A stretch of 64,000 nucleotides of DNA from Romanomermis culicivorax (taxonomy: Eukaryota > Nematoda > Enoplea > Mermithida > Mermithidae). Location of the stretch: the NCBI GenBank assembly GCA_963922205.1, contig CAWUHX010000351.1, forward strand, positions 232,428 to 296,427. Direction: 5' to 3'. Positions 31,641 to 64,000 of this stretch are shown here, in pieces. The notes beneath the pieces are model-generated. The model saw only the letters and a program-made list of their open reading frames with translations, was not told where the DNA came from and did not search any database. The number at the start of each line of letters is the position of its first letter. Position 1 is the stretch's first letter. The translations under genes and the position numbers were made by a program.

Positions 31641-43164
<11,524 letters not shown>

Positions 43165-47415: not shown

Positions 47416-47640
47416 TCTTGGTTTATGCTGGGATTTCTGCTTAAATGCTCCAATTTTTGCTTGACGCTGTATTCGTACAAATGTATCGCTTAATGTTTCC
47501 TTGGAGGGGATTTCCAGTTTCCTTTCTACGAATATCTGTCTTACTGTAGAAATAATTACTACTGTATTATCTAATGCTTTGGGATGCCCGGATAAGAGTA
47601 CACCTATTTGGGGGCAGGGAGTTCCAGTGGTTAATGGTAT

Positions 47641-47658
47641 GGTACGGTCACCAAAATA
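47641..47658 (-). other. Candidate primer-binding site of the old element
   Basis: On the minus strand the sequence just inside the 5' LTR reads TATTT then TGGTGACCGTACC. TGGTGACC fits the complement of a tRNA 3' end (a Trp-type end is possible). The 5-base gap after the LTR is common in Ty3/gypsy elements. The tRNA is not assigned. Confidence 0.4.
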
Positions 47659-48461
47659 TGTAACGACCAGATTTTGTGAAGCACTTTACTTTAACCAATT
47701 GGAGGTTACGGCCGAAATGGCTATAACAGAGTGGGGGGAATGGAATACAGGCGGTACACGGATAATACTAATCAACGGCGGCTTTGAGACGTCGACAACA
47801 ATAAAGGGGAAACACAGTGAGCTACAACAATGGCTTAACTGCTTCCAAAAAAAGGGACGCTCACTCACGATATAAAAAAAATCACGCTTTGCTTCTCTTT
47901 AAATATGACGTTTTTGGCCACACCCTGGGCGTTGCCGGAGGTCATGCTTCTGTCCATCTTCTTCAGCCAATCGTCGCTTCCTGCTTTACTATTCATGCTT
48001 ATTTAGTCACGCCCTTCTAAGGCTTTCCTAGTACTGTATGCTTTTCGTGTCTTGCTTGCTTCCTACGGTGGGCTTAGCCACACCTCTGTGCTTCTGTGCA
48101 TGCTTCCTGTATATGTTTCTTTGAATACACATGTTTTGTGGGGCCGTCGCTACCATTGCACTTGAGACTACTGTCTGGTGGGGCTTTTACTTATTTTACT
48201 GTGTGCAGATGTTGTTTACGATTTTTAGGGGGGATTACGGTAGCCGTGGAATGTGTAGTTTAGTGTAGGTTCTAGGGGACCAGCTGCCGTTTGTGCAAAT
48301 TAATTGGGGCATCTTAATTGGGCTACCGGGGTGTGAATGGATCAAAATAAAGTACTTCATGTTGAGACAATAAAATGTTAAAATGAAATAATATTTAATA
48401 AATGTCTATCACATACAGTATTGCTACATATTTACAGTATTGCTTTAGCAGGTACATTACA
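47659..48461 (-). repeat. 5' LTR of the old minus-strand element
   Basis: 803 bp, TGTAACG...CATTACA, so one terminal base differs from the other LTR. Its two ends align with the 3' LTR; the middle (about 47880-48330) is unique to this copy. Confidence 0.85.
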
Positions 48462-48465
48462 TGGG

Positions 48466-49202
48466 CAAGAGAGAAGAGAAAGTTATAAAGATGGAAATGA
48501 TGCTGTAGTTTAACAATTTTCTAAACAAAGTATACTTGATTCCAAAAAAGTAACATGAAAACTTTAAAAAGTGCTGTCTAAACAAATTATTTTCATGTCT
48601 GGCAAATTTAGGTTGAAGAATACGCGTTTTGGATGTTAGAAAACCTTTTTAAGGGCGGTAATTTTGTTGGCCGATTAAGTTCGTCAGCCGACTAAAGGAC
48701 GATTGCGTAATCGCCAATTAAAAGTGTAATTGCGCGCCCATTAAAATCATATAATCCAGGATTAAAAGTATAATCGCTACGAAAACTGTACAACGTATAC
48801 TGTCTATAGTGTAGGTGTACAGCTTTTCCTTCTGTACGTCGCCTTTCATCATGAATTTAACGTTATCAATTTTTCTCGTGATATCCACTTCAAAATCCAC
48901 GTGTCCCTAGAAAACCACTAATTTTTATTCTGAAGAAATTGAATTATTTAGTAGAAAATTAAATAAAATCATTTACTGTAGGGCTTAAATTTTCTATAAA
49001 AAAATTTTTATAGAATTTTTATTTAAAAAATTTCGTTTTTAAATAAATTTTCTTGTTTATTTTCTATTTTTATTATTTTTTAATCCAATTAGCTCTCTTG
49101 CACTGTCCTTACATATTCCAAAAAATCAACAACAGTTATTTTTTACCTATTAAACCGACTATGCAATCGCAAGAACAGATATAATCGGCCTTTTAAACCT
49201 GG
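48466..49202. other. Spacer between the two LTR elements, no gene
   Basis: AT-rich. A loosely inverted pair, GGCCGATTAAG near 48669 and TAATCGGCC near 49185, may mark the ends of a degraded small element. No supported ORF. Confidence 0.35.
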
Positions 49203-50653
49203 TGTCACGTGCCGCTCAATTCTCCAACGTCACGTGATTCCGATCATGCCGACATTTTGTTATTTTTCATGTTCCGTTTATTACTCGATCATGCTTTTGT
49301 TTATTTCATTTTTACACATGCATTTTGTGTTCGTTTTTTATATTTTTATGCATTTCTATGTTTCGTTTTGTTGTATTTTTATTTCTTTACAAACGCGGGC
49401 TACAGTAGGCCCCTTTAGCTAAAAACTTCCGCCAGTCGTGCTCCACGAGCACATGGCTATTTTTGGTGCGCTCACGCACCTCTTATCATCAAAAATTAGC
49501 GTCGTTTTTGTTACGCAAAACGACTAGCTAAGAAGTTTTAGCTAAAGACGTTCATATGCTTAGCATAGGCACTGCAGCCGGCCTCAGTGCTAAACGCATG
49601 TGAATGAAAAAATGTCTATGTGCTCATAGGCATCTTCTGCATCGCGTCTAGCTGCAGAAGTTAGCTTGAGCGCCGAGAAACTCCGCCCAAGCTGCAGCTG
49701 TAGCCAAACATGTCATGTTTCATGTTTCATCAGGACATGTTTCTTTAGTTTTTCGCTCATTCTTGGGTTCACCAAGCTTTCGTCCGGTTGTCACTTCGCG
49801 TCCGTCGCCCTTCTCGATTTGCATATTTTTATATACTCGATTGCGTCCGCCGCCTATTATTTTAAATAAATTTGCATACCCTTGCATCTCTTACTGCGTC
49901 CGCCGCTCACCGCCTACAGTACCCCGCTGCCCATCAGTGCCAGGTGTCCGACCGCCCCGGTTCGTGGATTAAACGTTGGAGTTTCGCCTCCCGCTCGCTC
50001 CCGCTCCCTCCCGCTTGCCGCCGCTCGCCGCCGCTCGCCGCCTAGGACGTTTGAGGATCGCATCCCCCGCTCCCAGTGCCAGAAGACCGAAAGCATCCAG
50101 GGACTTGCCGCCCGTTGCGTCGTAATCGCTTGAGAAACAGGACTAGGTGAGTCTTCTCAGGGGATTATTGTTATTTGTGGGTTATTTGTTGGGAAATCCT
50201 TCCTAAGTCGGTTTCCCAAGGTTTCCACAGATAAGTAGGGCCTCCACCTCTCAGGTTTGGGCTAAAAGGGGCTGTCTGGTTCATAATCGGGTCCCATAAT
50301 TTAGGTCATTTTACGGGTGACCCTGTCCCCACTCTCACTGAGTAGGACTCGGGGATTGTCGCACCTAGCCTGGCAGCGTTGTCCATTACCCTACAGCAAG
50401 ACCCCAAGGACAACACAAGAGAACCAACTATAGACCTCTCTATAGCCACCATTTGCCAGGTTAGGCCCCAACGCCAACTTGGGAAGCCTGGGGAAAATGC
50501 CAGTATCCATCAGGAGTCACAGCCTATTACTCACTGTAATAGGATCAATCTGATATGGTTCACCATCAATGTGACGTCTAAAACACGGTATTACCTGATG
50601 AGATACCCAAACCTCTCCAGCTCTCCCAAGATAAACCTGTCATACACGTGACA
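49203..50653 (+). repeat. 5' LTR of the young element
   Basis: The start TGTCACGTG is mirrored exactly by CACGTGACA at 50645-50653, giving a 1451-bp LTR. A second TGACA at 50666-50670 is an alternative end. A TATA-like ATTTTTATATACTC lies near 49824, AATAAA near 49866, and a run of CGCC/GCTC microrepeats at about 49990-50042. The 3' end cannot be checked because the other LTR is cut by the window edge. Confidence 0.75.
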
Positions 50654-50690
50654 TGGCGTAAAATGTGACATGGCGAGGCTGGAAAATCGA
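50654..50690 (+). other. Candidate primer-binding site region
   Basis: TGGCGTAAAATG follows the preferred LTR end and TGGCGAGGCTGG follows the alternative end at 50671. Both begin with the TGG expected opposite a tRNA CCA end. I could not match either to a particular tRNA. Confidence 0.3.
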
Positions 50691-51190
50691 CCTTAAGTCT
50701 GGCACTCGCCCTTAAGTGCAACAAAAATCTTCACCCTTGGGTCGGAACTACCCCCAGGTCGGGTCAACTCCCATTTTAAGTCGGACAAGCCCCCTTAAAA
50801 TTGGGCACTAGCCATCCAATAAGTCGGAGACCCCCCAAATTCGGGTTTACTGCCTAATGGGTTGGGAATGTCCCTTATTTCGGATTACCGCTACTGTAGG
50901 TCGGATACCCCCACCTCACGTCGCGTATTATTACTGTAAGTCGGAAATTTTTCCCGTGCCACCGAGAGTTATTACTGTAAATCGGGAATTTATCCCTAAA
51001 CATCAAATTTAATTACTGTAAGACGGGATTTGCCCTTACGAGTGATCCAAATGTGATCTATATGTGTAATAATTATCTCATGCGTGTGTATTATCCCCTA
51101 TGAGTAATAAATTTCCCCTGAGTCGAGTTATTTATCCTCAGAGTCGAGTTATCTGTCCCAGAGTTGAGTCATATATCGAGTATTCTGTAT
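50690..51190 (+). repeat. Degenerate AAGTCGG leader repeat
   Basis: Short imperfect units combine (T)AAGTCGG with a pyrimidine tract and often TTACTGTAAG. They recur about every 35-60 bases and grade into GAGTCGAGTTAT units near 51120-51180. They are confined to the leader and non-coding. Confidence 0.5.
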
Positions 51191-51829
51191 TTCTCCTCTG
51201 AGTTATTCTGTACATTCCGCATACTTAATCTGTGTTGTAAACTACCTTATCTGTTTCTTTTCCCTTATCCCCCCCTTTCTCTAATCCTGGGTGGTATACT
51301 GTAGCCCTCCGGGTGGGTGCCATTACAGTACGCCTGTGCCCATTCCCGTACGGTAACTACAGTATACCCATACGCGGGTACTGGTATCACAGCTGTAGGG
51401 GTTTACGGCCTCTCCTGACTGTTGGTGGTCCGTGACCCCATGATACCGTACACCCTCCACGTATGATTCTGGACGTCATACGTGGCTGCGATTTGTTAAT
51501 TGTGTACAGTATTTTTGTATGTCGGCGGAAACTGTCGGAATTGCTCACTTTTCCGGCCCCAAAATTTTACACCCACTGTTTACACATTTAACACGCGTAT
51601 GTCCAACTCTCGTGTTCCCCGTCTTCGGTTATTTCCTTTCCCTTTTTCTTTCTCGGTCATCTGAGCGGTGCAAAAAAAAAAAAAAAAAAAAAAAAAATTT
51701 TTTTCTGTTTTCCGGATGCCACCGCTACAGTATGACACCCTTGCGTAAGTTCGCCTATCCTCTTCATTTCTACTTACTGTAAGGTCTGCTTCTTCTACTT
51801 TCTGGTTGTTGCATCTTGAACATAGACTT
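51191..51829 (+). other. Leader segment without a gene
   Basis: Non-coding leader containing TACGGTAACTACAGTA-like phrases and a homopolymer of 26 A followed by T8 (about 51672-51705). No ORF with recognisable content. Confidence 0.4.
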
Positions 51830-52460
51830 TACGGGTCATGCTCTTTGACGTCAGCAACAACAACATTACGGGTTGTTGTTGTGTGGTTCAACCCCACGGA
51901 TGCAACCACTGACGTCTGCAACAGCCGCTTCACTTGCTGTTGCTTTAAGGGGTGGGTAGCCCTCCGGGTTCTACTCCTGACGTCAGCAACCGACATTACG
52001 TGTTGTTGTTTAAGTTAACACTCCAGCAGTAATGACTTCTGACATCTGCAACAGGTGAAGCCAATGTTGTTGTAACAGGTTCGGCTGGTTCTCTGCACCC
52101 CATCTGTGACGTCAGCAATGGTGACACACCGTGTCACTATTCGAAGATGTGCAGGTCTTACGGGTGCCACATCTGACGTCTGCAACAACTGCATCTCATG
52201 TCATTGACTCAAGGTATCAGACCCTCGGTTCCACCTTCTGACGTCAGCAACGGCACCATCACGTGTTGCTGTATACCGATAGCTGGCTTCAGGGCCCTAT
52301 TGCTGACGTCAGCAATGACAATGTATCATGTTTTCGCAGCAGGAATTGAGGTTACATGATCCTATTTCTGACGTCTGCAACGGTAACATTACGTGCTACT
52401 GCAGGGGTTTGCTGGCCTTAGGCACTTCCCCCTGGCGTCTGCAACTGCGATATGATACTT
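51830..52460 (+). repeat. Array of ~65-bp units with CRE-like TGACGTC(A/T)GCAAC cores
   Basis: Cores start near 51846, 51910, 51978, 52040, 52107, 52174, 52239, 52303, 52369 and 52433 (spacing 62-68 bp). Most keep TGACGTC followed by AGCAA or TGCAA, which alternate for the first seven units. Many cores are followed by a sequence complementary to the GCAAC part, for example GCAACAGC...GCTGTTGC (51917-51942), so each unit can fold into a hairpin. Degenerate cores continue to about 52870. TGACGTCA is the palindromic CREB/ATF site. Confidence 0.75.
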
Positions 52461-54338
52461 GAATACTCTTATCCCAGGCACCTGCAGTCAGCACCAGGGT
52501 CATGTGTTGGTTCATACCCCTACCATTTGACGTCCGCACCAGGTTACTGTCGGCTCTATGAGTATTCCACTTGAGTTGTAGGTGGTCGCTGGCGCATGGT
52601 CCTATCACCTACCTCTCTTGTCCAAGGGTTTTGTGTGTGTCTGGGGGCTGATGCCTGGGAAACATCAGTCCACATACATACACCACCCGAGATGCTCACT
52701 AGCCTGCGTGCTGATCAGGTTGTCCGCCCGGGTAGCGGCACTGTTGATCAGCACGTGGCTGTTTTTCAAGCTTTAACTGCAGGTTTGAACGAGTTACACT
52801 CGGCCTCAGCTGGGTTGGTTGCTTGACTCGTGTAGACGGCAGGCATTTGCAGTCAGTACTGCCTGTGTCTGACGTCTACAAGGGTTCGGCAATCTTCTTG
52901 TAAATTTCTTATCTAAATTCACTCATTCTCTTTCATCTCATCGAGCTGTCATACATAGATCTTCTTTAGTGTCCCCGCCGTAGTGGTTCCCAAGGGACCG
53001 CGGCACAGCCTCCGGTTGGGCCTAGAGTGTATAGGACCCCCTGTCATATTCAACTCACTCGAACGCCTTCGTTAACTGGCTTAACGATGCCCGCGCTAGA
53101 GTCGCCACTGACCCAGAGTCCGCCTCCGCGGTCCACCCCCTGTTAGTCATGTAAATAATAGGCACCGTTGAGTCCGCCTCAGCGAGGGTATTGAGTGCGC
53201 CTCGATACATAACTGCGTCCGCCCCAGTTACTTTACACTCATATTCAACCAGGGACACCTTGTACCCGTGATCCCTTAGATGTTTTCGGGTGCGCCCTCA
53301 AAACATCCAGAGTATTTCATTTTAACTGACTGAGTGTGTCAGAATAGCACCCTTGGTACCCGTGCTCCTTCCCTCTTCTACTGTGTGACCTGCGAACCTC
53401 ACTTCATCTCAGTGATCGGCAAACCCGGCCACCAGCTGTATATAATACTCCTGGAGAGTGTCCGTTCTGTTCGGAATGCGGGCTCCCGTTTCGGACACGG
53501 CTGTAAGTTACTTGCGAACGTCGTCCAACACGGAACCTCCTGTATAGTCCGTCTCACTATGCAGAGATCGCAATCGCTCCTGGCGAGTGAGGCCCGTTGC
53601 GTAACTGCGCGACCCCTTTGCGTAACTAGGTTTGTAAATTAGTTTTGTCCCTATTTATTGCTCCCTCTTAAGTTCATTTTCAGTTGACCCCATCCTTTTC
53701 ACATTGTGCCACTTTATGCGCTACTCCTGGTGAGTAGGATCTTGCCGGCTACGAGTCCGCCTCGCCCCAAGGTTTGTAAACTAGTACAGCGGTCGAACCT
53801 CCAGGAAAAATCCCTCCTGAGCGGGTTTATCCGTCATCTTATTTCTCCGCAGGAAAACCGCCTCTTCTCTCCTTTTATACCTGATCCTCTGTCCTCTTCA
53901 TCTATTCTAATTGCCGGGTCCAGGCCCCAATTCTACATTTTGGTCGGGATCGATTCCCCCATATCTCAGGCCATGCCTCTGTCCATCACGGGCGACCAGA
54001 TAAATTCCCTTCTGCGTCACCCTGATGTACTCTGATCTTACATCTTATAACCCTATTCCATTCTAGCTCCCTTTTCGTGGTCGCTAGTCTTAAGCTAAAT
54101 CAAGTTTACGTCACAAACGCCGTCGCGCACGCGTTTCCCGAATTCACGGGCTCTTACGCCGCGAATTCAAAAGTAGTACTCACTTTCATTTCACACAATA
54201 GAGACACCCCGTCGTTCCTGCCGTCTCAGTACCCAGCCTGTACAGACCAGTGAGCCGCTCTCTATTCAATTTGACTTAATTGCTTCACGGGCAAGGACGT
54301 CTGTTCTAACCACCTTACGGGAAAACGAACCCTCGGAC
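52461..54338 (+). other. Distal leader before gag, no supported gene
   Basis: Non-coding by inspection. Two or three more degenerate TGACGTC cores occur near 52528 and 52868. Open frames of 60-110 codons (for example 53706-54035) show no motif or homology I recognise and begin with no special context. Confidence 0.45.
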
Positions 54339-55463
54339 ATGAAGTCGGAAGCTGATCTCCCTTCACAGATCGAGAACAAAGTCCAGGCAGCATTTGAGAA
54401 TGCTCTTGGACCCCTCAACCAAAAGTTAGAGGCCATGAATGGTCGGAGGCACCCTCCCGTGTCCAGCTTTATGGCCCCTCCCACCTTCTCCGGTGCTTTT
54501 GGTGAGTCTATCACCGATTTTATGTCGCATCTTACTCGTTTCTTTACACTCCAGGGTGTAAGCGAAACGGATCATGCGTATAAAATCGCCTTTCTGGAGT
54601 CATGCCTCACGGGTCCTGCTCTCGCCTCCTACCGGGACTTTAGCAGCAGCACTCCAATACCTACCCGCTACGAAGAGTTTACGGCTTTTCTACGGAGAGA
54701 TTTTCCGGTAGGGCGCGACTCTGATCTGCATCAGCAGCTGATCCAAGATCGACTGCAGAAGCCGACAGAGTCCGCGATAGTCTACCTTGAGCACCTCAAG
54801 AGACTATCCAGGGTAGCGTATCCAGATCTCGCGACGGATGTCCGAGATTCTATCATCAACCCTTTCTTTCTGCGGGGACTGAAGCCGGTCCTCCGAGATA
54901 GTATCAAGTTTAGGGAGTTCACGACTCTTGAAGAGACACTCAAGGCAGCCTGTTACGCAGAATCCCAAATCTTTCGGGACGAGATCCGGTACACTGCTCC
55001 ATCTAACGCCATTTTCTCTTCAGAACCTAAACACGCCGGATATAATCCCGATATGCCTAACAGAAGCGCAAACGGTCGTCAGAGCAACGCTCCAACGTCG
55101 TCATCCTCCGCCGATGAGGTTCGCCGCTTGAAACAGGAAATGGCCAGGCTCACAGCCCACGTAGCGAAGCTCACGGCCCAGCAACGTGCACCCGCGCCAA
55201 TCCAACAGACGCCACCTTCACAGCCGTCGACACCAAATCAGTCCACCGGGCGACGCTCGTCGGGAGCACACCTTCAAACGTGCTCCTTCCACGGACTGTG
55301 TACACATAGCGACGCCGACTGCCGGGCCCAGCGTCCCACCGGTGCCGCTCCCGGTAACAACGCCGCTAACGGTGGTCGCTGTTATTTTTGCCGTACACGT
55401 GCCCACCCCACGGACCGATGTGATAGGCCATGCCCTCATTGTCGTCAAGTGCGAGTGCACTGA
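54339..55463 (+). CDS. gag: Gag (retrotransposon Gag domain plus Cys/His knuckles), ends at an in-frame TGA
   Basis: 374 codons from ATG. A helical N-terminus is followed by a retrotransposon-Gag-type core (about residues 45-215: PTFSGAFGESITDFMSHL, AFLESCLTGPALASY, FVGRDSDLHQQ-like and AYPDLATDVRD blocks). A coiled-coil stretch comes next (about 250-285). It ends with Cys/His fingers: CSFHGLCTHSDADC, then CYFCRTRAHPTDRC (CX2CX4HX4C). The TGA at 55461 falls inside a further knuckle (CPHC...VH-stop-STAC). The frame stays open for about 200 codons after it. The aligned position in the 43.9-48.5 kb element is Arg, so a CGA-to-TGA change is likely; readthrough is the alternative. Gag forms the particle and binds RNA. 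Confidence 0.85.
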   Translation: MKSEADLPSQIENKVQAAFENALGPLNQKLEAMNGRRHPPVSSFMAPPTFSGAFGESITDFMSHLTRFFTLQGVSETDHAYKIAFLESCLTGPALASYRDFSSSTPIPTRYEEFTAFLRRDFPVGRDSDLHQQLIQDRLQKPTESAIVYLEHLKRLSRVAYPDLATDVRDSIINPFFLRGLKPVLRDSIKFREFTTLEETLKAACYAESQIFRDEIRYTAPSNAIFSSEPKHAGYNPDMPNRSANGRQSNAPTSSSSADEVRRLKQEMARLTAHVAKLTAQQRAPAPIQQTPPSQPSTPNQSTGRRSSGAHLQTCSFHGLCTHSDADCRAQRPTGAAPGNNAANGGRCYFCRTRAHPTDRCDRPCPHCRQVRVH

Positions 55464-56881
55464 TCAACTGCCTGTCCGCAGCGCAATCCAGCAAACAAGG
55501 GTGAGAATGTCTACCAAGATACTGGTTATTCTTCCCAGGGGACAAATGTGTATCATCAAAGAAATGGTTATCACCCTCCCAACGGGATAGGAAACCAATA
55601 TCGGCAGCCCATACGCCGCAACAACGCCGTTGGGGCTACCGATGGCCCTCCTCATCCAGATCCTCTTGACCTGGATGATGAGGCACTTGCTGAACACCTG
55701 ACAGATTCTTCACAACAGTGTTATCCTGTCTGCGTAATCAGTATTGGATTTTCAGTGGTCCAAGCAGCCCAGGTACCCGTACCGATAAACGTATTGGACA
55801 TACCGCTGCCACCACCACCACCAAAGTATGCGATGCCGGTCACTCTGGACCCCTCGACGACACCGCAGTTTGTTGGCCACGCTAACATCCTCGCATCATA
55901 TCGCATTCCTAAAATTAAGACTGCCGAGCCAGCTCCAGCCGCGAATACGACGTCTTCGGCGCCACCGGCCCGCATCGTCCCTCCAGGACCACCCCCTTCG
56001 ATCCCCATGGATTCGGCTACGGAAGTCCTCGACCAGGTCGAGCCCATGAATTTGTCAGGTATACTACCTTCTTCTTCAGGTGATCCTAGAGTAGGAACCA
56101 GGAATCTATCTCAGTCCACGACTCTATCGATTTCTTGTTCACAGCGCCATCGCCCGTCCAAGACGCGATGTTGGCCATCTGGTCAGTCGACCTGGCCAAG
56201 AAATACCCGCATTTGCTGTGGACTCTGCTCAACGAGCCATCGCATGTCGAAGCGCTCACGGCGGCCGACATCGTGCTTGCAGCACCCGTCTCAATGCGCC
56301 TCTTACGACCCGACGTCGCCCGACGGGCACTCGAGTTCATTGCCAATGGGACTATCACCATCTCGCCCGTCGAGAAGTTTTTATTGGACGGGGAGCCATC
56401 CTCGCCTTCAGTCGATGCCGTCCGCCGAGCAGTCGAACAGGCCAGTCCGATCCTCCTGCCTGCTGCCGCCGCTACATCACCGGCAGCAGCGCCACCTGTT
56501 GCCGTGACATCGCCAACGAAAATGGACATTACTGCTTCCTCGCCCCCGGCCAAGGAACCCGCAAATGATCCTACACCGCCGGCAACAGCCCAACATACAT
56601 CGTCGGCAACAGCCCAGGTTAAATCGCCGGCACCAGCCCAAACGACATCTCCGACCGCTGCGACCAAGTCGCCCGTCGTCAAACACATGGCCGTCGACGA
56701 GACCTTACGTCCGGTTAACGAAGATGTCAGCATCGTTGAGGAATCCCCGTTCCCAACGGCAGTCGCCCCACGGTCGCCGAAAATCAGTATCCTCCGGGAA
56801 ATCCACCCGTGCGGTGGATTGGTCCTCGATTTCCCCGGCCAGGAACCAATCTCGTCCGACAGCGACGAAGAAGAAATCTGA
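55464..56881 (+). CDS. Gag extension / Pro-Ala-rich linker ORF, with a possible 86-bp intron
   Basis: After the TGA the gag frame continues to 56058 with a Pro-rich part ([26 protein letters not shown]) homologous to the linker of the 43.9-48.5 kb element. Coding sense then moves to another frame, from 56145 to a stop at 56881. That part is a predicted helical domain ([19 protein letters not shown]) followed by Ala/Pro/Thr-rich low complexity and an acidic end [12 protein letters not shown] at 56059 and an AG at 56144 (after TTTCTTGTTCAC) would join the two frames exactly in phase, so an intron is plausible; a one-base frameshift is the alternative. Function unknown; by position it may be a capsid or matrix extension. 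Confidence 0.55.
56059..56144 (+). other. Candidate intron inside the linker ORF
   Basis: It has donor CAG/GTATAC and acceptor TTTCTTGTTCACAG/C. The length of 86 bases is not a multiple of three and precisely corrects the reading frame between the two halves of the linker. The unspliced frame stays open into an unrelated-looking sequence until 56507. The donor resembles that of WDR5 exon 1 (GTATAT). Confidence 0.4.
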
Positions 56882-57544
56882 CACTGCCCCTCAGGCCAGA
56901 TTTGTGAAATTGAGTGAACACTTACAAATTACGTTTGTACAGTTGTTTTTGACAATAAAATTGACCTTGGTAGCATCACTGTTTCTAGGGGTGAGTTTGT
57001 CAGCACCGGCGGCTCAGTATCAATTTTGCGGTCTCTCAAGAAGCGGACATCTACTTGAGTTACCACAGCGTGTAGAGTGTAAACCACCGCAATCTTCATG
57101 GAGCCCGCGGCGCATGAATGTTACGGTGTATGTCCCTAGTTCAGACCCGATTACAGCCACAGCGTGGAAATGCACATTGCGCTCCCACAAAGTCTGCACC
57201 AACACTGGTTTCTGCGGCATGCACGCTAGCACATCGCACTAAGATGTTTGGTTCACAAAAACTTGTCGGCGTTCGCCCTGGCTTTTATAGCACAAACCAA
57301 ACATTGGAAGTGATGTACGAATGGTGCTGCAGCGACGTCTGCAAGACAGTGACTAACCTCTTCATCGAGGAGGGACAAGTCGCTTCGTGGGACGGCACTA
57401 CGGCCCTAAGCACCTTAGGCGACGTAGGTGGATGCAGCCCCACTGCAGGCCAGTGCACTACTCTAGACGGGGTCATTTGTCTGGCCTGCACAGAACTTCA
57501 CGGCGCGGTGTCATTATCACCCCAAGGGAAATTACACTGCGTCC
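56882..57544 (+). pseudogene. env: Envelope-like glycoprotein, N-terminal part (split over three frames)
   Basis: The first part (to 57242) has a hydrophobic signal peptide (TLVASLFLGVSLSAPAA, about 56965-57015) and then a Cys-rich ectodomain with KVCTNTGFCG. The second (about 57243-57468) lies in the next frame: VRPGFYSTNQ, YEWCCSDVCKTVTN, GCSPTAGQC. The third resumes in the pol frame from about 57470. Every block has a counterpart, in one frame, in the glycoprotein at 44.7-45.7 kb. The last shift falls in a GGGG run, so a one-base insertion is the simplest cause. Near 57240 about 20 codons present in the relative are absent. No ATG precedes the signal peptide in this frame, so expression would need splicing or fusion to the linker. 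The fusion-protein class is not assigned. Confidence 0.65.
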
Positions 57545-60500
57545 ATGTCAGGGAACCACGTCATCATCGATGATCTGCAGGTTGCCCTTAAGATCCCGGG
57601 AAACTCCCGCGTCTTCCAACTGCGCCCAGAACTACGTTCCACCACAGTCGGGACGGATCAGGGTCTTCTCCTTCGCATCCACGGGAGATACAATTTGACC
57701 CAAAACTTGTTCAGAGTGGCAACAGACAGCCGTCCCGATCCTGTCAATGCCAAACTGAACTATCTGGCTCAGCAGATCAAGGAGTCGGAAATTAACGGTT
57801 TCTGGTTCACGTGGCTTGAGCTCTGCTCTCACGCTCAACGCTATCTTGATCTGACTTGGCAGTTGCTTCGCTTCGACCCTACCCTGGGTGCCCGGGCATT
57901 CCTCCAGAGGAATGACCTGACGGCGGAATTCACAGGCGATGCGCTGACAATATGGCCGTGTCAGAAGGTCAACGCCACCTACGTTTACCACTCGTACCGA
58001 GTGGGGAACGTTTGCTACAAGTACTTACCTGTACAGGTTGGCGGCACCATCTACTTCGCCACCCCCGGTGGTCCGGATCTCATTAAATCTAGCCCAATTG
58101 TGCCGTGTCATCACCACTTTACAGGGATTTTCCGAAATCGCTCGGGCTGGTTTACTGAGTCTGGCGCGGTCCATGTGAGCCACATCCCACTGGAACTCTT
58201 CTGGAAGCAGCGCTTCAACATCACTCACTTTGAGGCACCGGCGCTCTTCCATGACCAGTTGGCGATGACCCCTTCAAACTTTGCCTCCTTTAAACAGTAC
58301 GTTTACAAGACTGAGCAAATTGAAGCGGTACTCAACCGGCTGGTAAACTTTACGGCTGGCCTATCCCTGCAACCCGACGCCATTTACCAGGCCTTTGCAG
58401 GGGTAGGAACCGACATCAAGGCCTCTCTGGAAGGTGTCGGTTTGGCAGCAAACCATGTTATTACGGGTCAACAACACACCCTCGCCCAGGGCTTGCATGC
58501 TGTCCTGAGCGGGCCGGTCCAGTTGATCTTTAACATCCTAATTACCCTGACAGTGCTGATCGGTGCCGGATACCTTGCCTATCTTGGTGTATCCTATTAT
58601 CTCAGCTACCGTCTGCGGAGCAAACAGGTCAGGTTTGTTAGCCATTTCTCCCCGTTGGGTCTTTACTGCAAAGTCCAACGCTGGATCGGTTTTCACTACG
58701 TGCAAAACGATGTGCCCTCCCAGCTTGACCGAATCACACCGTGTTTCGTCGTGCTGCTGGACACCAAGGAAACTCCTGCTTTCCTTGACACGGGTTGCCC
58801 ACGCACTATCATTAGCCAACGTCTTCATAAGGCCTTGGCTAAAGAAAGTCCGAAGGCGGTCATGGCGTTCCAGCAACATCACGACTTTAACCCATTGATG
58901 AGCATCAATGGTAAAGCCGTTCATACCATCCTTTCGGGACCATATGAAATCATGTTGCCCGGAAACCGCCAGCCGAACACACGGATCGATGTACATCTCC
59001 ATGTGTGCAAGACTACGTCTCCCTTCTGGGCACCTGTTGACCTCATACTCGGACTGGACTTCTTAGAACAGTTCAAGAACATTATGTTTGACTACCAACG
59101 TAATGTTTGTCGGCTGGACGTGGTAGAATTACCCCTCCTGCTGACCACGCCGGAGATTGACCAGATCGACCCCTGGTGGGAGAACACCCGTGCTCTCTCG
59201 CGAAACTCACACAGGTCGGGATCACGATCGCGGTCCAGGGCTTCGTCCATCTCTCGGCCACACTCACGGGCCTCCTCGGTTGCCTCATCACGTGGGTCAA
59301 CTAGGGGATCCCGGGCCTCTTCTAGACGGGCAAGTCGTCATCTGTCGACCTTGCACGGGTCAGGTTGCCCTCGACCTCCGCCTGGAACCTCTCCAGTTAC
59401 GCTAGAGAAGGGCCGATACCGTGAGCCAAGTGATTCAGATGCCCCGACATCACCCGTGCCAAACGCGCCTCCGCTATCGGACACCGAGGTTGAATCACTA
59501 GGAGCTACTCAGAGTCCGAAGGATCACTCAGACCACGTAGTAATGGTGCAGGATGAGTCCACCCTTCTGAATGACCCGGAACCTTCCGTCGGATATGCTC
59601 TAGTAGGTCTTCTACGTCGTACGGGACTGCCGATTCCAAAGTGGTCCGGTAAGCCCAAACACGCTAGTGGTGCCACCACACCTGATTCCGGTCATGTGGT
59701 CACTGCTTTTTACCCAAATGATATTCGGACACCCCATATCAAAGTTCTCCTCAACAACTGGGTAGAAGCGAAGGCACTGGTCGACACAGGAGCTGTTTTC
59801 TCACTCCTGGACCACAAGTTAGCGGCCCAGCTGCCCAACTTGTTACTATCACCAACCAGGGCACGCCCTATCGCAGCCAATGGGTCCCCGATCCCACTGC
59901 TAGGAGCAGCCTACATCACGGTTACAGTGGCTGATGTCTCTGAACGGATTCAGGTCCAAATACAGGAGAACTGTTCAGCCGAACTGGTCCTTGGAACCAA
60001 CTTCCTTGGCCGGTTCAATTGTGTCAGCTTGAACTGGGAGAAATCCTTCCTCCAGTTCAAAGAAAGTAGAATCCCCTGTGACGGTCTCATCCACAGCCCA
60101 CCTTCCGCCCGCGGCGCCTTGCCCCTGAAGGACTTGGTAATTCTGGAGCCTCGCTCCCTGACACGATTCACTGTCCCTGTTCCACCAATCTATACAAACG
60201 TGCCTGAGGTGGCCTTCTTTCCGAAGCACCTCACCGGATCTCAAAGACACGTATATTTTGCTGGAAGCGTGAGTACCGTGACCAACGGTCACATACCACT
60301 TCAGGTAGTTAACCCGAGTACTCATTCCGTGGTTCTCTACCCGCACACGACCATCGGTCATGTGCAGATGCATAGTGAGCCCTCACGGGAATCACTGGTC
60401 GACTCAGACATCGTCCTCGATTGTCAGTGGGTCGAGGCCAACGCTGTAATCTCACCGGACATCTCCCCTCGGGACCGGGCAGCCTTACTCGATCTGCTGG

Positions 60501-62494
60501 TTGCATACACCGACCTCTATGCTCTTGATGAAAAGGACACAGGTTCCACTGATCTCGTCCAGCACGAAATCAGCACGGGCGATGCCCGCCCAGTCCGCCG
60601 TTTCCCTTACCGGTCCTCACCTAAGGAAAAGGATCTCATCATGCAAGAGGTCAAGGTGCTCCAGGAGAAAGGTATTATTCGGCCGAGCACGTCCCCGTGG
60701 GCTACTAATACTGTCCTGGTGCGCAAGAAAAACGGTTCTCACCGTATGTGTGTTGACTTTCGTGGTCTTAACGAGGTCACGAAAAAGGATGTCTACCCTC
60801 TCCCGCGGATAGATGACATTCTCGACACACTCAAGGGTATGAAATATTTCACTACCCTTGACCAGGCTAACGCTTATTGGTCAATCCCGATTGCCGAGGC
60901 CGATAAGGAAAAGACGGCTTTTAATACGCCTATTGGACTTTACGAATTCAATTACTTGCCTTTCGGTTTATGCAACGCGCCAGGGACATTTCAACGCCTT
61001 ATGGACCTCCTCCTTACTGGAATCCAATGGCGCACAGTTCTGACTTATCTCGACGACATTTTGGTGTTCGGGAACTCTCACACCCAAATGCTTGAGCGCC
61101 TGGCAGATGTGTTCGCCCGTCTTCGCCGGGGTGGAATGAAGCTCAGACTGAGCAAGTGCAAATTCTCGCACTCAGAGGTAGAATACCTAGGCTATCGCAT
61201 CTCACAGAGCGGCCTAGAGCCTGACCAAGCCAAGCTGGCCGCCGTCCAAAACCTACCCATTCCACAAAACGCCAAAGACATCAAGTCCTTCCTAGGCCTC
61301 GTGTCTTACTACAGGCGTTTCATCCCTGGTTGTGCCCGGCTCAGCGAGCCACTCACCAAGCTCTTACGGAAGGAAACTACTTTCCAGTGGTCAAAACCTC
61401 AGCAGGAGGCGTTCGATGAACTCCGCCGCCTGCTGACCAACCCTCCTATCCTGCGCCATCCGGACTTTTTGAAATCCTTTATCCTTCAAACTGATGCAAG
61501 TATTTCGGGGATAGGAGCGGTTCTTAGCCAGTTAGACGAAAATGGATACGACCATCCTGTCGCGTACGCCAGCCGAGGGTTAACAGCGGCCGAGAAAAAC
61601 TACTCCATTACAGAACTGGAGACTCTCGCTGTTGTCCATTTCGTCAAGCACTTTCGACCATACCTCTTCCAGCACGAGGTGGTCGTTCAGACTGACCATA
61701 CCGCGGTCAAAGCAGTGTTGGAGAAGCCTAACCCCTCTGCTCGGATCGCTCGGTGGGGACTCGCGCTCGCCGAATTCAAACTGACAATTCGGCCGCGAAA
61801 AGGTCAGTCTAATGGTAATGCTGACGCATTATCACGCCTGCCGGATCCTAACTCCCTCACCGGTCAGAGTATTGATGATACTTCCCCCTACAGACCTGAG
61901 GGGTACGTTATGATGATCACCGATGGTGCGCAGCACCTGGCGCGATCCAGGACCTTGACCGATGGTGTGCAGCACCTGGCGCGTTCAAGTAATTCAGCAC
62001 CGATCACTGTTGGCGCGGAGCGCCCGGTACGATCAGAGTCTTATGCCGAGATATCCGTCGGTGCGCAGCACCCCGACCTTTTCGCTGCTCAGCTGGAGGA
62101 TCCGGAGTTAGCCGACATCATTCGCTCTCTTAAGCCTCTGGGCGACCAGAATGATGTGCGAGGCTACCATCTGTTGGATAACGTTCTTCAGAAATGGACA
62201 GGCGAGTCCAATAAGATCGTCATACCCAGATCCATGGTTACTACCATTATCCGGGCTCATCACGATGACATCTTAGCTGGACACTTCGGTGCTAAACGTA
62301 CTGCGCGGCTCATTGCTCGCAGATACCACTGGCCCTCCCTCAGTCGGGATGTCAAGTCCTTCTGTCAGCGGTGTGATCTTTGCCAACGGAATAAGCCCCG
62401 CTCGACAGAAAACCACTGCAACCCTGAAACCTATCACCATCACGGGACCGTTTCACCGGGTAGGTGTCGACTGCATGGGACCAATGACCACTAG
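57545..62494 (+). CDS. pol: Env C-terminal half fused to Pol: two retropepsins, RT, RNase H, integrase N-terminus
   Basis: A 1649-codon frame. The start is the first ATG but coding continues upstream from env. Residues 1 to about 320 are the env ectodomain with Cys and Asn-glycosylation sites. About 326-354 form a transmembrane helix. Retropepsin-like domain 1 has DTG at 415-417 and LILG near 498. An Arg/Ser-rich linker occupies about 550-602. Retropepsin-like domain 2 has DTG at 747-749 and LVLG near 813. RT starts near 1016 with YLDD at 1168-1171. RNase H has Asp at 1317, 1384 and 1427 with Glu near 1357. A repeated linker lies at about 1459-1512. The integrase zinc domain (H-H, CQRCDLC) is near 1570-1612. 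After that a CCCC run shifts the frame and the last codons are out of register. The precursor would be membrane-anchored with Pol on the cytoplasmic side. Confidence 0.85.
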   Translation: MSGNHVIIDDLQVALKIPGNSRVFQLRPELRSTTVGTDQGLLLRIHGRYNLTQNLFRVATDSRPDPVNAKLNYLAQQIKESEINGFWFTWLELCSHAQRYLDLTWQLLRFDPTLGARAFLQRNDLTAEFTGDALTIWPCQKVNATYVYHSYRVGNVCYKYLPVQVGGTIYFATPGGPDLIKSSPIVPCHHHFTGIFRNRSGWFTESGAVHVSHIPLELFWKQRFNITHFEAPALFHDQLAMTPSNFASFKQYVYKTEQIEAVLNRLVNFTAGLSLQPDAIYQAFAGVGTDIKASLEGVGLAANHVITGQQHTLAQGLHAVLSGPVQLIFNILITLTVLIGAGYLAYLGVSYYLSYRLRSKQVRFVSHFSPLGLYCKVQRWIGFHYVQNDVPSQLDRITPCFVVLLDTKETPAFLDTGCPRTIISQRLHKALAKESPKAVMAFQQHHDFNPLMSINGKAVHTILSGPYEIMLPGNRQPNTRIDVHLHVCKTTSPFWAPVDLILGLDFLEQFKNIMFDYQRNVCRLDVVELPLLLTTPEIDQIDPWWENTRALSRNSHRSGSRSRSRASSISRPHSRASSVASSRGSTRGSRASSRRASRHLSTLHGSGCPRPPPGTSPVTLEKGRYREPSDSDAPTSPVPNAPPLSDTEVESLGATQSPKDHSDHVVMVQDESTLLNDPEPSVGYALVGLLRRTGLPIPKWSGKPKHASGATTPDSGHVVTAFYPNDIRTPHIKVLLNNWVEAKALVDTGAVFSLLDHKLAAQLPNLLLSPTRARPIAANGSPIPLLGAAYITVTVADVSERIQVQIQENCSAELVLGTNFLGRFNCVSLNWEKSFLQFKESRIPCDGLIHSPPSARGALPLKDLVILEPRSLTRFTVPVPPIYTNVPEVAFFPKHLTGSQRHVYFAGSVSTVTNGHIPLQVVNPSTHSVVLYPHTTIGHVQMHSEPSRESLVDSDIVLDCQWVEANAVISPDISPRDRAALLDLLVAYTDLYALDEKDTGSTDLVQHEISTGDARPVRRFPYRSSPKEKDLIMQEVKVLQEKGIIRPSTSPWATNTVLVRKKNGSHRMCVDFRGLNEVTKKDVYPLPRIDDILDTLKGMKYFTTLDQANAYWSIPIAEADKEKTAFNTPIGLYEFNYLPFGLCNAPGTFQRLMDLLLTGIQWRTVLTYLDDILVFGNSHTQMLERLADVFARLRRGGMKLRLSKCKFSHSEVEYLGYRISQSGLEPDQAKLAAVQNLPIPQNAKDIKSFLGLVSYYRRFIPGCARLSEPLTKLLRKETTFQWSKPQQEAFDELRRLLTNPPILRHPDFLKSFILQTDASISGIGAVLSQLDENGYDHPVAYASRGLTAAEKNYSITELETLAVVHFVKHFRPYLFQHEVVVQTDHTAVKAVLEKPNPSARIARWGLALAEFKLTIRPRKGQSNGNADALSRLPDPNSLTGQSIDDTSPYRPEGYVMMITDGAQHLARSRTLTDGVQHLARSSNSAPITVGAERPVRSESYAEISVGAQHPDLFAAQLEDPELADIIRSLKPLGDQNDVRGYHLLDNVLQKWTGESNKIVIPRSMVTTIIRAHHDDILAGHFGAKRTARLIARRYHWPSLSRDVKSFCQRCDLCQRNKPRSTENHCNPETYHHHGTVSPGRCRLHGTNDH

Positions 62495-62828
62495 CGAAGC
62501 CGGCAACCGTTTCATCGTAGTCTTTATCGACTACTTCACAAAATGGGTCGAGGCTTTTGCTACTCCGGATATCACTGCGCACACCATAGCCCGGCTGTTT
62601 GTAACGCAAATTGTCTGCCGGCACGGGGCACCGCAGATTCTTCAATCAGATCGTGGCACTGATTTCACATCAAAACTGATGACTGAGATCACTGCGATCT
62701 GCGCCACGAAGAAAATCCACTCTACCGCCTATCACCCGATGACCAACGGCGAAGTGGAAAGAGCTAATCAGACGCTAGCCACACGGCTACGTATGTATGT
62801 TCACCAAGGGACATACCGATTGGGATGA
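62403..62828 (+). CDS. Integrase catalytic core (shifted frame)
   Basis: This continues pol one frame over. The DD35E residues are visible: Asp at 62469 (VGVDCMGP), Asp at 62649 (QSDRGTDF) and Glu at 62757 (NGEVERAN), with 35 residues between the last two. The frame enters from the previous ORF at a CCCC run near 62397 and leaves near 62803 at a CC, again by one extra base. The enzyme inserts the cDNA into host DNA. With both shifts present, this copy cannot make it by ordinary translation. Confidence 0.8.
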   Translation, partial: RQKTTATLKPITITGPFHRVGVDCMGPMTTSEAGNRFIVVFIDYFTKWVEAFATPDITAHTIARLFVTQIVCRHGAPQILQSDRGTDFTSKLMTEITAICATKKIHSTAYHPMTNGEVERANQTLATRLRMYVHQGTYRLG

Positions 62829-63429
62829 ACACCTACCATACGCTGTGTTTGCCGTCAATATCAGCATGAATGAGTCAACAGGGTACTCGCCCTTTGAACT
62901 CATGTACGGTCGCACACCCATGCTCCCTGTTGATGCCGCACTCTCATTCAACCCTCCGGCCCATATCATTAATGTTTCCTCATATGATATGGAGGTCAAA
63001 CGTCATTTCACGAATGCGTTAACCTTAATCCAGAGTCGGATTGAGAAAGCACAGGAAGCCTATGCACGGTCGTACGACCGGAAGGCACATGATGTCTCAT
63101 ACAAAGTAGGGGATCAGGTGCTCAAACTGCGCACCTCCAGCAAACGTGGACTCACTCCTAAATTGCTGCCCATCTACAATGGACCCTACCTTGTAACAAG
63201 TGTGGCATATCCCAATGTCACACTTCGTCTAGAGATGGATCAGGAAGACACTGTACATGTCAACCAGCTTCGACTTTACGTGTCCCCTGAACAACTAAGT
63301 GAAGCAGAGGATACACCTCCCACTTCACAGGCAACAGGTTCGGCACCCTTATTGTATCCCTCAATAAGCCGGGACTTTACACCAAATCTGATTGACCCAC
63401 ATCTTGATGCAGAGGTCCCCGACCCGTAA
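62797..63429 (+). CDS. Integrase C-terminus with GPY module
   Basis: The last frame segment of pol begins with HLPYAVFAVN and NESTGYSPFELMYGR, typical of sequence after the integrase core. Next come the basic KVGDQVLKL, then GLTPKLLPIYNGPYLV (GPY/F module), VHVNQLRLYVS and a Pro/Ser-rich tail to the stop at 63427. It closely matches the integrase tail at 44.44-44.71 kb in the older element. No chromodomain is seen. The ATG at 62797 is probably not a true start; the segment belongs to the Pol polyprotein. Confidence 0.8.
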   Translation: MFTKGHTDWDEHLPYAVFAVNISMNESTGYSPFELMYGRTPMLPVDAALSFNPPAHIINVSSYDMEVKRHFTNALTLIQSRIEKAQEAYARSYDRKAHDVSYKVGDQVLKLRTSSKRGLTPKLLPIYNGPYLVTSVAYPNVTLRLEMDQEDTVHVNQLRLYVSPEQLSEAEDTPPTSQATGSAPLLYPSISRDFTPNLIDPHLDAEVPDP

Positions 63430-63949
63430 CTCAGGATGCATTCTCTTCATCGTCCCCGCTTACGGACGAGGACGTCCTTTTTCGAAGGACCGCCGTGCCC
63501 CTCACGAAGTATCCACTCTTGTCCATGCTGGATTTTAGCGGATAGAAGAGAGCGTTCAGCAACCTAAGGGTCACGCCTTAGGCGCATCCTCACGCGATAG
63601 CCTACACTTCACTGGGTGCATCCTCTGCGATAGCCCGACAATCTGTACCTCACTGGGCGCATCCTCGGCGATAGCCTACATCTTGCCCTGAAAATTTTTT
63701 CTTTTCTGTGTTCTAGACCTTCGCACAGGATATTCAATGTCGGCAACTTCACGCATCAACAACCTCCGGTCACCATACCACTGAACGAATCACGATCAAA
63801 GAAGGCTTCATCCGCCAACAACCCAATGGACCTATTCGACCACTCTCGCCGTCACACCTTGGAATGACCTACGACCACGGACACGCCGCACAAAACCTCA
63901 CTACTGACCACCGCAAGGACGAGGACGCCCTTTTTCGAAGGACCGCCGT
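63430..63949 (+). repeat. 3' non-coding region with short tandem and duplicated motifs
   Basis: Three imperfect ~40-bp units built on GCATCCTC...GCGATAGCC...CACTGGG lie at about 63577-63690. A ~32-bp block (GACGAGGACG, then CCTTTTTCGAAGGACCGCCG) occurs at about 63466-63497 and again at 63918-63949, directly before the 3' LTR. It contains a CCTTTTTCGAAGG inverted pair. No classical polypurine tract abuts the LTR; AAGGACGAGGACG within the second block is the nearest purine-rich stretch. Confidence 0.6.
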
Positions 63950-64000
63950 GTCACGTGCCGCTCAATTCTCCAACGTCACGTGATTCCGATCATGCCGACA
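63950..64000 (+). repeat. 3' LTR, first 51 bases
   Basis: Identical over all 51 bases to the start of the 5' LTR at 49203-49253. The window ends here. Confidence 0.9.

What the first reader, a model, noticed from the sequence alone, without database searches (positions are those of the whole stretch)
56882..63429. Envelope-like glycoprotein lies between Gag and Pol, and its membrane half is in frame with Pol
Known LTR retroelements with an env gene carry it after pol. Here a signal-peptide, Cys-rich, glycosylation-site-bearing segment follows gag. Its transmembrane helix (about 58520-58605) runs without a stop into protease, RT, RNase H and integrase. Translation would give a type I membrane protein with Pol as its cytoplasmic tail. 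The gag-env-pol order, and the possibility of a membrane-anchored Pol precursor, look undescribed.
Basis: partly seen in the sequence, partly recalled or inferred. Interest (0 to 1): 0.88.

Follow-up and report, generated by a model that had tools for sequence, protein, structure and literature searches.

The report
Retroelement with envelope fused before polymerase
A virus-like jumping element in a nematode genome carries its envelope gene between the shell gene and the enzyme genes, joined to the enzymes in one reading frame, and unnamed database relatives share this arrangement, which the description of its virus family does not foresee.

Summary
The window copy is a decayed member of a recently active Ty3/Gypsy-type LTR family in a nematode genome. 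The segment between Gag and protease is a viral-type glycoprotein: Pfam Monjiviricetes_fusion (E 5e-13), and the family profile matches herpesvirus gB in the PDB (best E 4e-4). In the window the Env ectodomain is split over three frames; among 104 scored copies (window included) 66 lie in one open frame of at least 2,990 codons. In 5 copies picked for long frames, Gag, Env and Pol pieces share one frame. Eleven proteins from unnamed sources have Env ahead of Pol in one ORF (one of them by eye); seven run Gag-Env-PR-RT-RNaseH-IN. A second family in the same genome has Env and integrase in one ORF in 19 paired copies. Env and RT divergence correlate (r 0.80). Env variation is mainly synonymous. 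A constrained overlapping ORF sits between Gag and Env. Best reading: Env is anchored by one helix with Pol as its cytoplasmic domain. Whether Gag is in the same chain, or Env-Pol comes from a spliced RNA, is open. The ICTV profile places Env downstream of integrase; no description of this order was found in the searches made.

The parts
49202..50670 (+). 5' LTR (about 1.47 kb; sibling LTRs begin TGTCAC and end GTGACA)
   Evidence: 96.9% alignment to the 3' LTR of a sibling copy; ends and 4-bp target-site duplications in siblings
50671..54176 (+). about 3.5 kb leader; a primer-binding-site-like sequence follows the LTR in 9 of 9 sibling copies inspected; short frames recur in siblings without sign of constraint
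   Evidence: stop-to-stop frames of 105-135 aa in 8 of 8 and 102 aa in 7 of 8 sibling leaders, variants near neutral expectation
54177..55463 (+). Gag: Ty3-type capsid and zinc knuckles (knuckles read by eye); frame continues to 56507 after a stop in this copy
   Evidence: Pfam Ty3_capsid E 4.2e-8; 5 siblings open here
56090..56881 (+). ORF2: overlapping ORF (263 aa) in the -1 frame relative to Gag/Env, acidic tail, stop just before Env; the frame with amino-acid constraint in this stretch
   Evidence: dN/dS-like ratio 0.40 in this frame against 1.30 in the Gag-Env-Pol frame; third-position excess; no Pfam match
56508..57242 (+). end of Gag-Env linker, signal-peptide-like hydrophobic segment (about 56.94-57.02 kb) and N-terminus of Env, in the Gag frame
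   Evidence: ORF; hydropathy of the sibling translation; alignment with the family Envs
57118..57573 (+). middle of the Env ectodomain, displaced into another frame in this copy
   Evidence: ORF; corresponding residues lie in one frame in sibling P0008
57467..58660 (+). C-terminal part of Env ectodomain and transmembrane helix (about 58.52-58.61 kb); Monjiviricetes_fusion match at 57743-58180
   Evidence: Pfam PF24664 E 5.4e-13; PDB profile match to gB
58661..59731 (+). cytoplasmic stretch, a possible extra aspartic-protease-like domain (about 58.74-59.1 kb, DTG motif by eye) and an Arg/Ser-rich linker
   Evidence: frame; sibling Peptidase_A3B E 0.043 only, so uncertain
59732..60013 (+). aspartic protease domain, in frame with Env
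   Evidence: Pfam PF13975 E 8.1e-10
60719..61777 (+). reverse transcriptase and RNase H
   Evidence: Pfam PF00078 E 5e-35, PF17917/PF17919
62222..63429 (+). integrase: H2C2 zinc domain in the Env-Pol ORF, core in 62277-62828, C-terminus in 62779-63429 (frame broken in this copy)
   Evidence: Pfam PF17921, PF00665; open to one stop in 5 of 5 siblings read
63949..64000 (+). first bases of the 3' LTR, cut by the end of the contig
44441..47685 (-). decayed copy of a second, diverged family: Gag stretch (46950-46645 matched; 47685-47245 and zinc knuckles near 46434-45922 by position and eye only), signal peptide plus Env (45805-44441), then an internal deletion into the integrase C-terminus
   Evidence: ORFs; Env pieces 42% and 35% identical to sibling P0008, Gag piece 40% over 78 aa, integrase piece 40% over 103 aa; 150 scored places in the genome, window's included; Env and integrase in one open frame in 19 places

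Best explanation
It is a Ty3/Gypsy-type LTR retroelement with a monjiviricete-type (gB-like, class III) envelope glycoprotein built in between Gag and protease and fused in frame to Pol. The inferred product has a signal peptide, an Env ectodomain in the ER lumen, one transmembrane helix, and PR-RT-RNaseH-IN as the cytoplasmic domain. Env would thus carry Pol to the membrane where Gag particles bud, and protease would later free the enzymes. In 7 of the 8 relatives that reach integrase Gag is in the same ORF, so a Gag-signal-Env-TM-Pol chain spanning the membrane twice is possible. Shown: order, frame, signal and TM segments, conservation, synonymous-biased variation, recent insertions. Inferred: topology in a cell, membrane anchoring of Pol, proteolysis, particle budding, infectivity. 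The first two rivals below are sub-variants of this reading that differ on Gag.
For: Window ORF joins Env, TM, PR, RT, RH, IN zinc domain. 66 of 104 scored copies lie in an open frame of at least 2,990 aa, 40 of exactly 3,092; Gag and Pol pieces of 5 of 5 copies, chosen for long frames, are in the Env frame without stops. Eleven relatives have Env ahead of Pol sequence in the same ORF (10 by Pfam, P0005 by eye), Gag upstream in 8 of 11, Gag through IN in 7. Second family: in 19 places Env and the integrase end lie on one strand, 4,762 bases apart, in open frames of equal length. Signal-like and TM segments flank Env. 16 cysteine columns invariant in 12 of 12 Envs. Env and RT identities correlate, r 0.80, p 0.0001, 10 taxa, and supported clades agree. 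Env dN/dS-like ratio 0.18. LTR pairs with 0 mismatches in 3 of 9 copies.
Against: No RNA or protein data. In the first family about 255 codons between Gag and Env are constrained in another frame (ORF2), and the Gag-Env-Pol frame there looks unconstrained (ratio 1.30; the last 120 bases before it 1.04), which speaks against a selected Gag-Env-Pol chain in this family. Relatives P0002 and P0005 begin at Env without Gag, P0013 has a helicase in place of Gag. Sibling loci used for dN/dS were the top hits of an Env-piece search, which biases its C-half (0.07), and so the 0.18 for all of Env, low; the half outside the query gave 0.51. The signal segment of P0004 and P0014 fell under the hydropathy threshold. 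Structure prediction could not be run.
Confidence: 0.72

Rival explanations
1. Env-Pol is one protein, but made apart from Gag, from a spliced or trans-spliced RNA; ORF2 is a separate accessory product. The in-frame link to Gag is then a by-product.
For: ORF2 is the constrained frame between Gag and Env and stops just before Env. P0005 begins with its own Met and signal peptide at Env; P0002 begins at Env. Acceptor-like AG sites precede the signal segment, though such sites are frequent throughout the stretch.
Against: The Gag-Env-Pol frame stays open through ORF2: 0 stops in 5 of 5 copies tested against means of 2.1-2.9 in synonymous shuffles (fractions 0.011-0.043; copies not independent; the control frame was also low in 2 of 5, fractions 0.046 and 0.026), and 1 stop-creating variant against 5.8 expected. 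Gag is in one ORF with Env in 8 of 11 relatives. No ATG lies directly at the signal segment in the sibling read. No exact SL1 leader was found.
Confidence: 0.45
2. One unbroken Gag-signal-Env-TM-Pol polyprotein is made from genomic RNA and cut by signal peptidase and the element's protease, like the capsid-envelope polyproteins of flavi- and alphaviruses (comparison recalled).
For: Single ORFs of 2,293-2,847 aa from Gag to integrase in 7 relatives; frames of exactly 3,092 or 3,100 aa in 55 of 104 scored copies; in the second family frames of 2,478-2,572 aa leave about 1.9-2.2 kb of ORF outside the Env-to-integrase span, room for Gag (Gag itself not checked there).
Against: Dual coding in the first family with an unconstrained linker in the continuous frame; P0002, P0005, P0013 lack Gag in the ORF; equal amounts of Gag, Env and Pol would be unusual (recalled).
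Confidence: 0.4
3. The glycoprotein is a passive endogenous viral fragment that happened to land in a retroelement.
For: Captured negative-strand-virus glycoproteins are often found near LTR elements (PMC10084718: abstract, Results section and passages).
Against: Same place and frame in relatives down to about 31-40% Env identity, agreeing Env and RT clades, 16 invariant cysteine columns, synonymous-biased variation.
Confidence: 0.02
4. Assembly chimera or chance joining of pieces.
For: The window ends at a contig end and the copy is broken.
Against: 104 scored copies on many contigs, LTR pairs with target-site duplications, and independent relatives.
Confidence: 0.01

Closest known systems
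Metaviridae (Ty3/Gypsy), including Errantivirus
   Same: LTRs with TG..CA ends and 4-bp duplications, Ty3-type capsid, order PR-RT-RNaseH-IN, an Env in some members
   Different: ICTV profile PMC7879559 (passages): Env, where present, is encoded downstream of integrase; insect errantivirus-type Env is baculovirus F-type (PMC12992720 passages). Here Env is upstream of protease, fused to Pol, and of Monjiviricetes_fusion type
Anakin (BEL/Pao with chuvirus glycoprotein, mosquitoes; PMC7642597 passages and section 16) and the BEL-type hit P0007
   Same: captured glycoprotein of the same broad family; 14 of 16 cysteine columns shared with P0007
   Different: BEL/Pao, not Ty3/Gypsy; in P0007 Env follows integrase; a passage of the Anakin paper places the Env-like proteins of Roo, Tas and Cer-7 downstream of the polyprotein
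TelKA elements of bdelloid rotifers; lokiretroviruses
   Same: Env taken from, or similar to, fusion proteins of negative-strand RNA viruses (PMC5408684 passages; PMC9040795 passages)
   Different: TelKA Env is an ORF3, paramyxovirus F-like; the passages seen report no Env upstream of pol
MDG1-group sORF2 fusogens (PMC11952523 passages)
   Same: a membrane fusogen coded ahead of pol
   Different: a small FAST-like protein upstream of gag, not a viral glycoprotein fused to Pol

Membership tests
Metaviridae (Ty3/Gypsy) | PR-RT-RNaseH-IN order with integrase last | tested here: met
   relatives
Metaviridae (Ty3/Gypsy) | Ty3-type capsid in Gag | tested here: met
   Ty3_capsid E 4.2e-8
Metaviridae (Ty3/Gypsy) | LTRs with TG..CA ends and 4-6 bp target-site duplication | tested here: met
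   TGTCAC..GTGACA; 4-bp duplication in 7 of 9 copies with LTR pairs as read (6 of 9 by the script, which misplaced one end); 1 of 10 copies fetched gave no LTR pair
Metaviridae (Ty3/Gypsy) | PBS and polypurine tract | tested here: inconclusive
   TGG-starting sequence after the LTR; no clear polypurine run before the 3' LTR, by eye; tRNA match not tested
Metaviridae (Ty3/Gypsy) | Env, where present, downstream of integrase | tested here: not met
   Env upstream of protease
Metaviridae (Ty3/Gypsy) | RT placed inside the family by a tree with named references | not tested
   only relatives of the finding were in the tree
Monjiviricetes-type fusion glycoprotein | match to the family profile above curated cut-off | tested here: met
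   48.2 bits against 27; 6 of 6 Envs of alignment A3 match at E up to 1, best 2e-19
Class III fusion protein (gB-like) | fold of gB | tested here: inconclusive
   sequence-profile match only, gB in 8 of 13 rows up to E 10, best E 4.1e-4; structure prediction off
Errantivirus | baculovirus F-type Env after pol | tested here: not met
   Env type and position differ
Belpaoviridae (Anakin) | Pao peptidase A17 and Env after integrase | tested here: not met
   no Peptidase_A17 in the window ORF

The most novel reading that the evidence does not exclude
A broad lineage of LTR retroelements makes Gag, Env and Pol as one membrane-spanning polyprotein: Gag cytosolic, an internal signal peptide, Env in the lumen, one helix, Pol cytosolic. 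Pol would be packaged as the tail of its own envelope protein, a particle-assembly route that I know of in no reverse-transcribing virus.
Probability: 0.4. Interest if true: 0.93.

Novelty: new variant of a known kind. Interest (0 to 1): 0.86.

Why it matters
Every retroelement must get Pol into its particle, and Gag-Pol fusion is the usual answer (general knowledge, recalled). An Env-Pol fusion would be a different one and would tie Pol packaging to envelope assembly. The lineage also shows that an env can sit upstream of pol and stay there through deep divergence, so a search that looks for env only after integrase would miss it. Copies with identical LTRs suggest recent activity, so expression and processing could be tested in the living worm.

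Tried and rejected
Chance or chimera: rejected, 104 scored copies and independent relatives. Mollusc haemocyanin domain: 0 matches, but nothing rang in the controls either, so uninformative. Exact nematode SL1 22-mer: 0 matches, so a trans-splicing route for Env-Pol rests on no leader found here. Trematode eggshell family: not completed. Viral contigs: 38 pattern stretches and 0 relatives for the alignment query; 0 stretches for P0006. tblastn of the Env piece against phage records: none. Rfam on the window at gathering scores: 0. Homology of ORF2 to relatives: nothing better than E 0.26. Constraint on recurring short frames of the leader: none visible. Structure prediction: not available, so no fold search.

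Paper searches for the arrangement. (phrases for the order) returned 0 papers. (33 papers hold 'retrotransposon', 'env' and 'between gag and pol'; 20 listed): I looked at passages of three, PMC10309623, PMC8556966 and PMC2577118, and none describes an env there; the other 30 were not opened for this. The library lacks most subscription journals and bioRxiv, so absence is limited to it.
Full report
What is in the window. From about 49.2 kb to the end of the contig lies one LTR retroelement on the + strand (2-kb windows from 50 kb on have 48-55% GC; those before 50 kb 30-42%). Its 5' LTR is about 49202-50670 and its 3' LTR begins about 63949, where the contig stops. [quoted passage not shown] the integrase core follows in a second frame. 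Order on the DNA: Gag, Env, PR, RT, RNaseH, IN. This copy is broken: stops lie between Gag and Env, the Env ectodomain is split over three frames and integrase is broken.

Siblings. A search of the window's own genome (359 Mb, 595 contigs) with the Env piece scored 104 of 3,511 first-look candidates, the window's own copy among them, at 97-100% identity; 66 of 104 lie in an open frame of at least 2,990 aa, 40 of exactly 3,092 and 15 of exactly 3,100. Of 29 sibling loci read over 1,398-1,399 codons (linker, Env, protease), 24 have no stop. For 5 copies, chosen among those with long frames, the Gag and Pol pieces were fetched apart: in 5 of 5 both are in the Env frame, with no stop from before Gag to the end of integrase. 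Of 10 copies whose ends were fetched, 9 gave an LTR pair; mismatches are 0, 0, 0, 1, 2, 2, 6, 24 and 34 over 1,419-1,473 aligned bases, with 0-32 gap columns. A 4-bp target-site duplication is readable in 7 of 9 (the script gave 6 because it misplaced one LTR end). The family has thus been active recently and keeps many unbroken copies.

Relatives elsewhere. Three protein searches over 5.77 billion sequences gave 13 further proteins (7 of 4,156 candidates; 1 of 7,199; 7 of 3,571, of which 5 new). One, P0007, is a BEL/Pao polyprotein with Env after integrase. P0009 ends inside Env. In the other 11 Env precedes Pol sequence in the same ORF. Pfam recognises the protease after Env in 9 of 11, and in P0010 RT, RNase H and integrase; in P0005 I read a DSG motif and the start of RT by eye. 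Gag is upstream in the same ORF in 8 of 11; P0002 and P0005 start at Env, P0013 starts with an SF1 helicase. Seven run from Gag through integrase in one ORF: P0001, P0004, P0006, P0010, P0011, P0012, P0014 (Gag similarity by BLAST against these few proteins, for P0004 by Pfam Ty3_capsid E 0.0011). The length filter of these searches favours long proteins, but Env-Pol ORFs without Gag also fit it. Host species of these proteins are unknown.

What the glycoprotein is. All 6 members of an Env alignment match Monjiviricetes_fusion, 4 the bornavirus G model and 3 weakly herpesvirus gB. The profile matches gB chains of the PDB best (5cxf E 4.1e-4; 8 of 13 rows listed up to E 10 are gB). Sixteen cysteine columns are invariant in 12 of 12 family Envs, 14 of them shared with P0007. 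N-glycosylation motifs number 3-9 per Env; an RX[KR]R site lies in the ectodomain of P0004 and P0006 and of the BEL-type P0007. A class III fold is likely but untested.

Topology. A hydropathy scan puts a signal-like segment just before and a transmembrane segment at the end of Env; the first falls under the threshold in P0004 and P0014 and is absent in P0002, which begins at Env. Five other segments over threshold in P0003, P0005, P0006 and P0013 lie in protease, RT, helicase or terminal stretches. Own Gag and Pol pieces have none.

Co-inheritance. Env and RT-RNaseH identities over 10 taxa correlate (Mantel r 0.80, p 0.0001). Groups in one tree recur in the other: own with P0001 and P0002 (88/98 in the Env tree, 100/99 in the RT tree), P0011 with P0012, P0006 with P0010 (with P0005 in the Env tree); the deeper Env forks are unresolved. 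One old capture followed by descent is the simplest reading; env-less relatives were not in the tree, so losses or repeated captures are not excluded.

Selection. Variants of 28 siblings against one natural copy: over Env 105 synonymous and 41 non-synonymous against 43.9 and 97.2 expected, ratio 0.18; the C-half 0.07, the N-half 0.51; protease regions 0.24 and 0.19; the last 120 bases of the Gag-frame stretch before ORF2 1.04. The loci were top hits of a C-half query, so 0.07, and with it 0.18, is biased low; the N-half and protease values lie outside the query. Between Gag and Env the picture reverses: the Gag-Env-Pol frame gives 1.30, the -1 frame, an ORF of 245-263 aa ending in an acidic tail just before Env, gives 0.40. 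Third positions of that frame take 23 of 33, 26 of 37, 22 of 38, 24 of 47, 22 of 49 and 13 of 36 variants in overlapping 240-base windows, so the signal fades towards Env. So this stretch codes ORF2, at least in its first two thirds. Yet the continuous frame stays open: 0 stops in 5 of 5 copies in which ORF2 could be located (of 6 tried) against means of 2.1-2.9 in synonymous shuffles (fractions 0.011-0.043). The third frame, a control, had 3-7 stops, but was also low in 2 of 5 (0.046, 0.026), so this test is weak. Both frames may be used, for example by frameshifting or splicing at the Gag/ORF2 border. I do not know which.

Second family. On the minus strand at 47685-44441 the window holds another, diverged element: a Gag stretch, zinc knuckles (by eye), signal peptide and Env, then a deletion into the integrase end. 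Its Env N-part scored 150 of 2,795 candidates (84-90% identity apart from itself); most lie in short frames, but frames of 2,484 aa recur 8 times, 2,518 4 times and 2,544 twice. A search with its integrase end scored 150 of 2,640 candidates. Pairing the two lists (42 Env rows with frames of at least 1,800 aa) gives 21 neighbours on one strand; in 19 the Env and integrase matches lie 4,762 bases apart in open frames of equal length, Env first; in 2 the frame is broken. In copies with frames of 2,478-2,572 aa about 1.9-2.2 kb of the ORF lies outside this span, enough for Gag; Gag there was not checked.

Host. Fifty cuticle-collagen N-domains (Col_cuticle_N) mark a nematode. The exact SL1 22-mer is absent.

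How it probably works. Inference: Env is targeted by its signal peptide, anchored by one helix, and Pol forms the cytoplasmic domain, so Env brings Pol to the budding site; protease next to the membrane frees it. The Gag link is less sure, given ORF2. The analogy to flavi- and alphavirus polyproteins is recalled, not tested.

Known or new. The ICTV Metaviridae profile says Env, where present, is encoded downstream of integrase (passage). Dezordi 2023 found no clear capture of such glycoproteins by Gypsy elements (passage); Anakin is BEL/Pao. Kojima 2025 names Errantivirus and Anakin as examples of captured envelopes (passage). Phrase searches for the order gave 0 papers. I rate it a new variant of a known kind: the core is a Ty3/Gypsy-type element, the gene order and Env-Pol fusion are new as far as searched.

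Noticed in passing
window 44441-47685 (-): A second, diverged Gag-Env family, decayed, with an internal deletion from Env into the integrase C-terminus; 150 scored places genome-wide, 19 with Env and integrase in one open frame.
   Followed up: partly
G000 contigs C26, C180, C90, C81, C122: Second-family Env copies recur at about 8.37-8.41 kb spacing, as if elements stand head to tail sharing LTRs.
   Followed up: no
window 56090-56881 (+): Overlapping ORF2 between Gag and Env, constrained in the -1 frame; no known domain; the continuous frame there encodes a strongly basic Arg/Ser/Pro-rich stretch (net +45).
   Followed up: partly
window 58740-59100 (+): A possible second aspartic-protease-like domain with a DTG motif directly after the transmembrane helix, ahead of the recognised protease; P0013 also has two protease matches, with DCG motifs (read by eye).
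   Followed up: partly
P0013: A 3,263-aa relative with an SF1-type helicase upstream of Env in the same ORF.
   Followed up: no
P0010, P0014: dUTPase between Gag and Env in P0010; an RRM domain between Gag and Env in P0014.
   Followed up: no
P0004, P0005, P0006, P0010: A similar basic motif (WYQRF plus Arg/Lys) in the cytoplasmic stretch after the transmembrane helix, read by eye.
   Followed up: no
L001-L008: A very abundant other Ty3/Gypsy-type family (scored integrase hits often in a 2,305-aa frame), about 33% identical in the integrase region; whether it has an Env is unknown.
   Followed up: partly
window 50671-54176 (+): Long leader of about 3.5 kb; in siblings, frames of 105-135 aa recur in 8 of 8 and of 102 aa in 7 of 8 without visible constraint; no clear polypurine run before the 3' LTR.
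   Followed up: partly
window 35777-39689 (+): Stretches of a WDR5-like WD40 protein gene (39072-39689 tested; the others read by eye).
   Followed up: no
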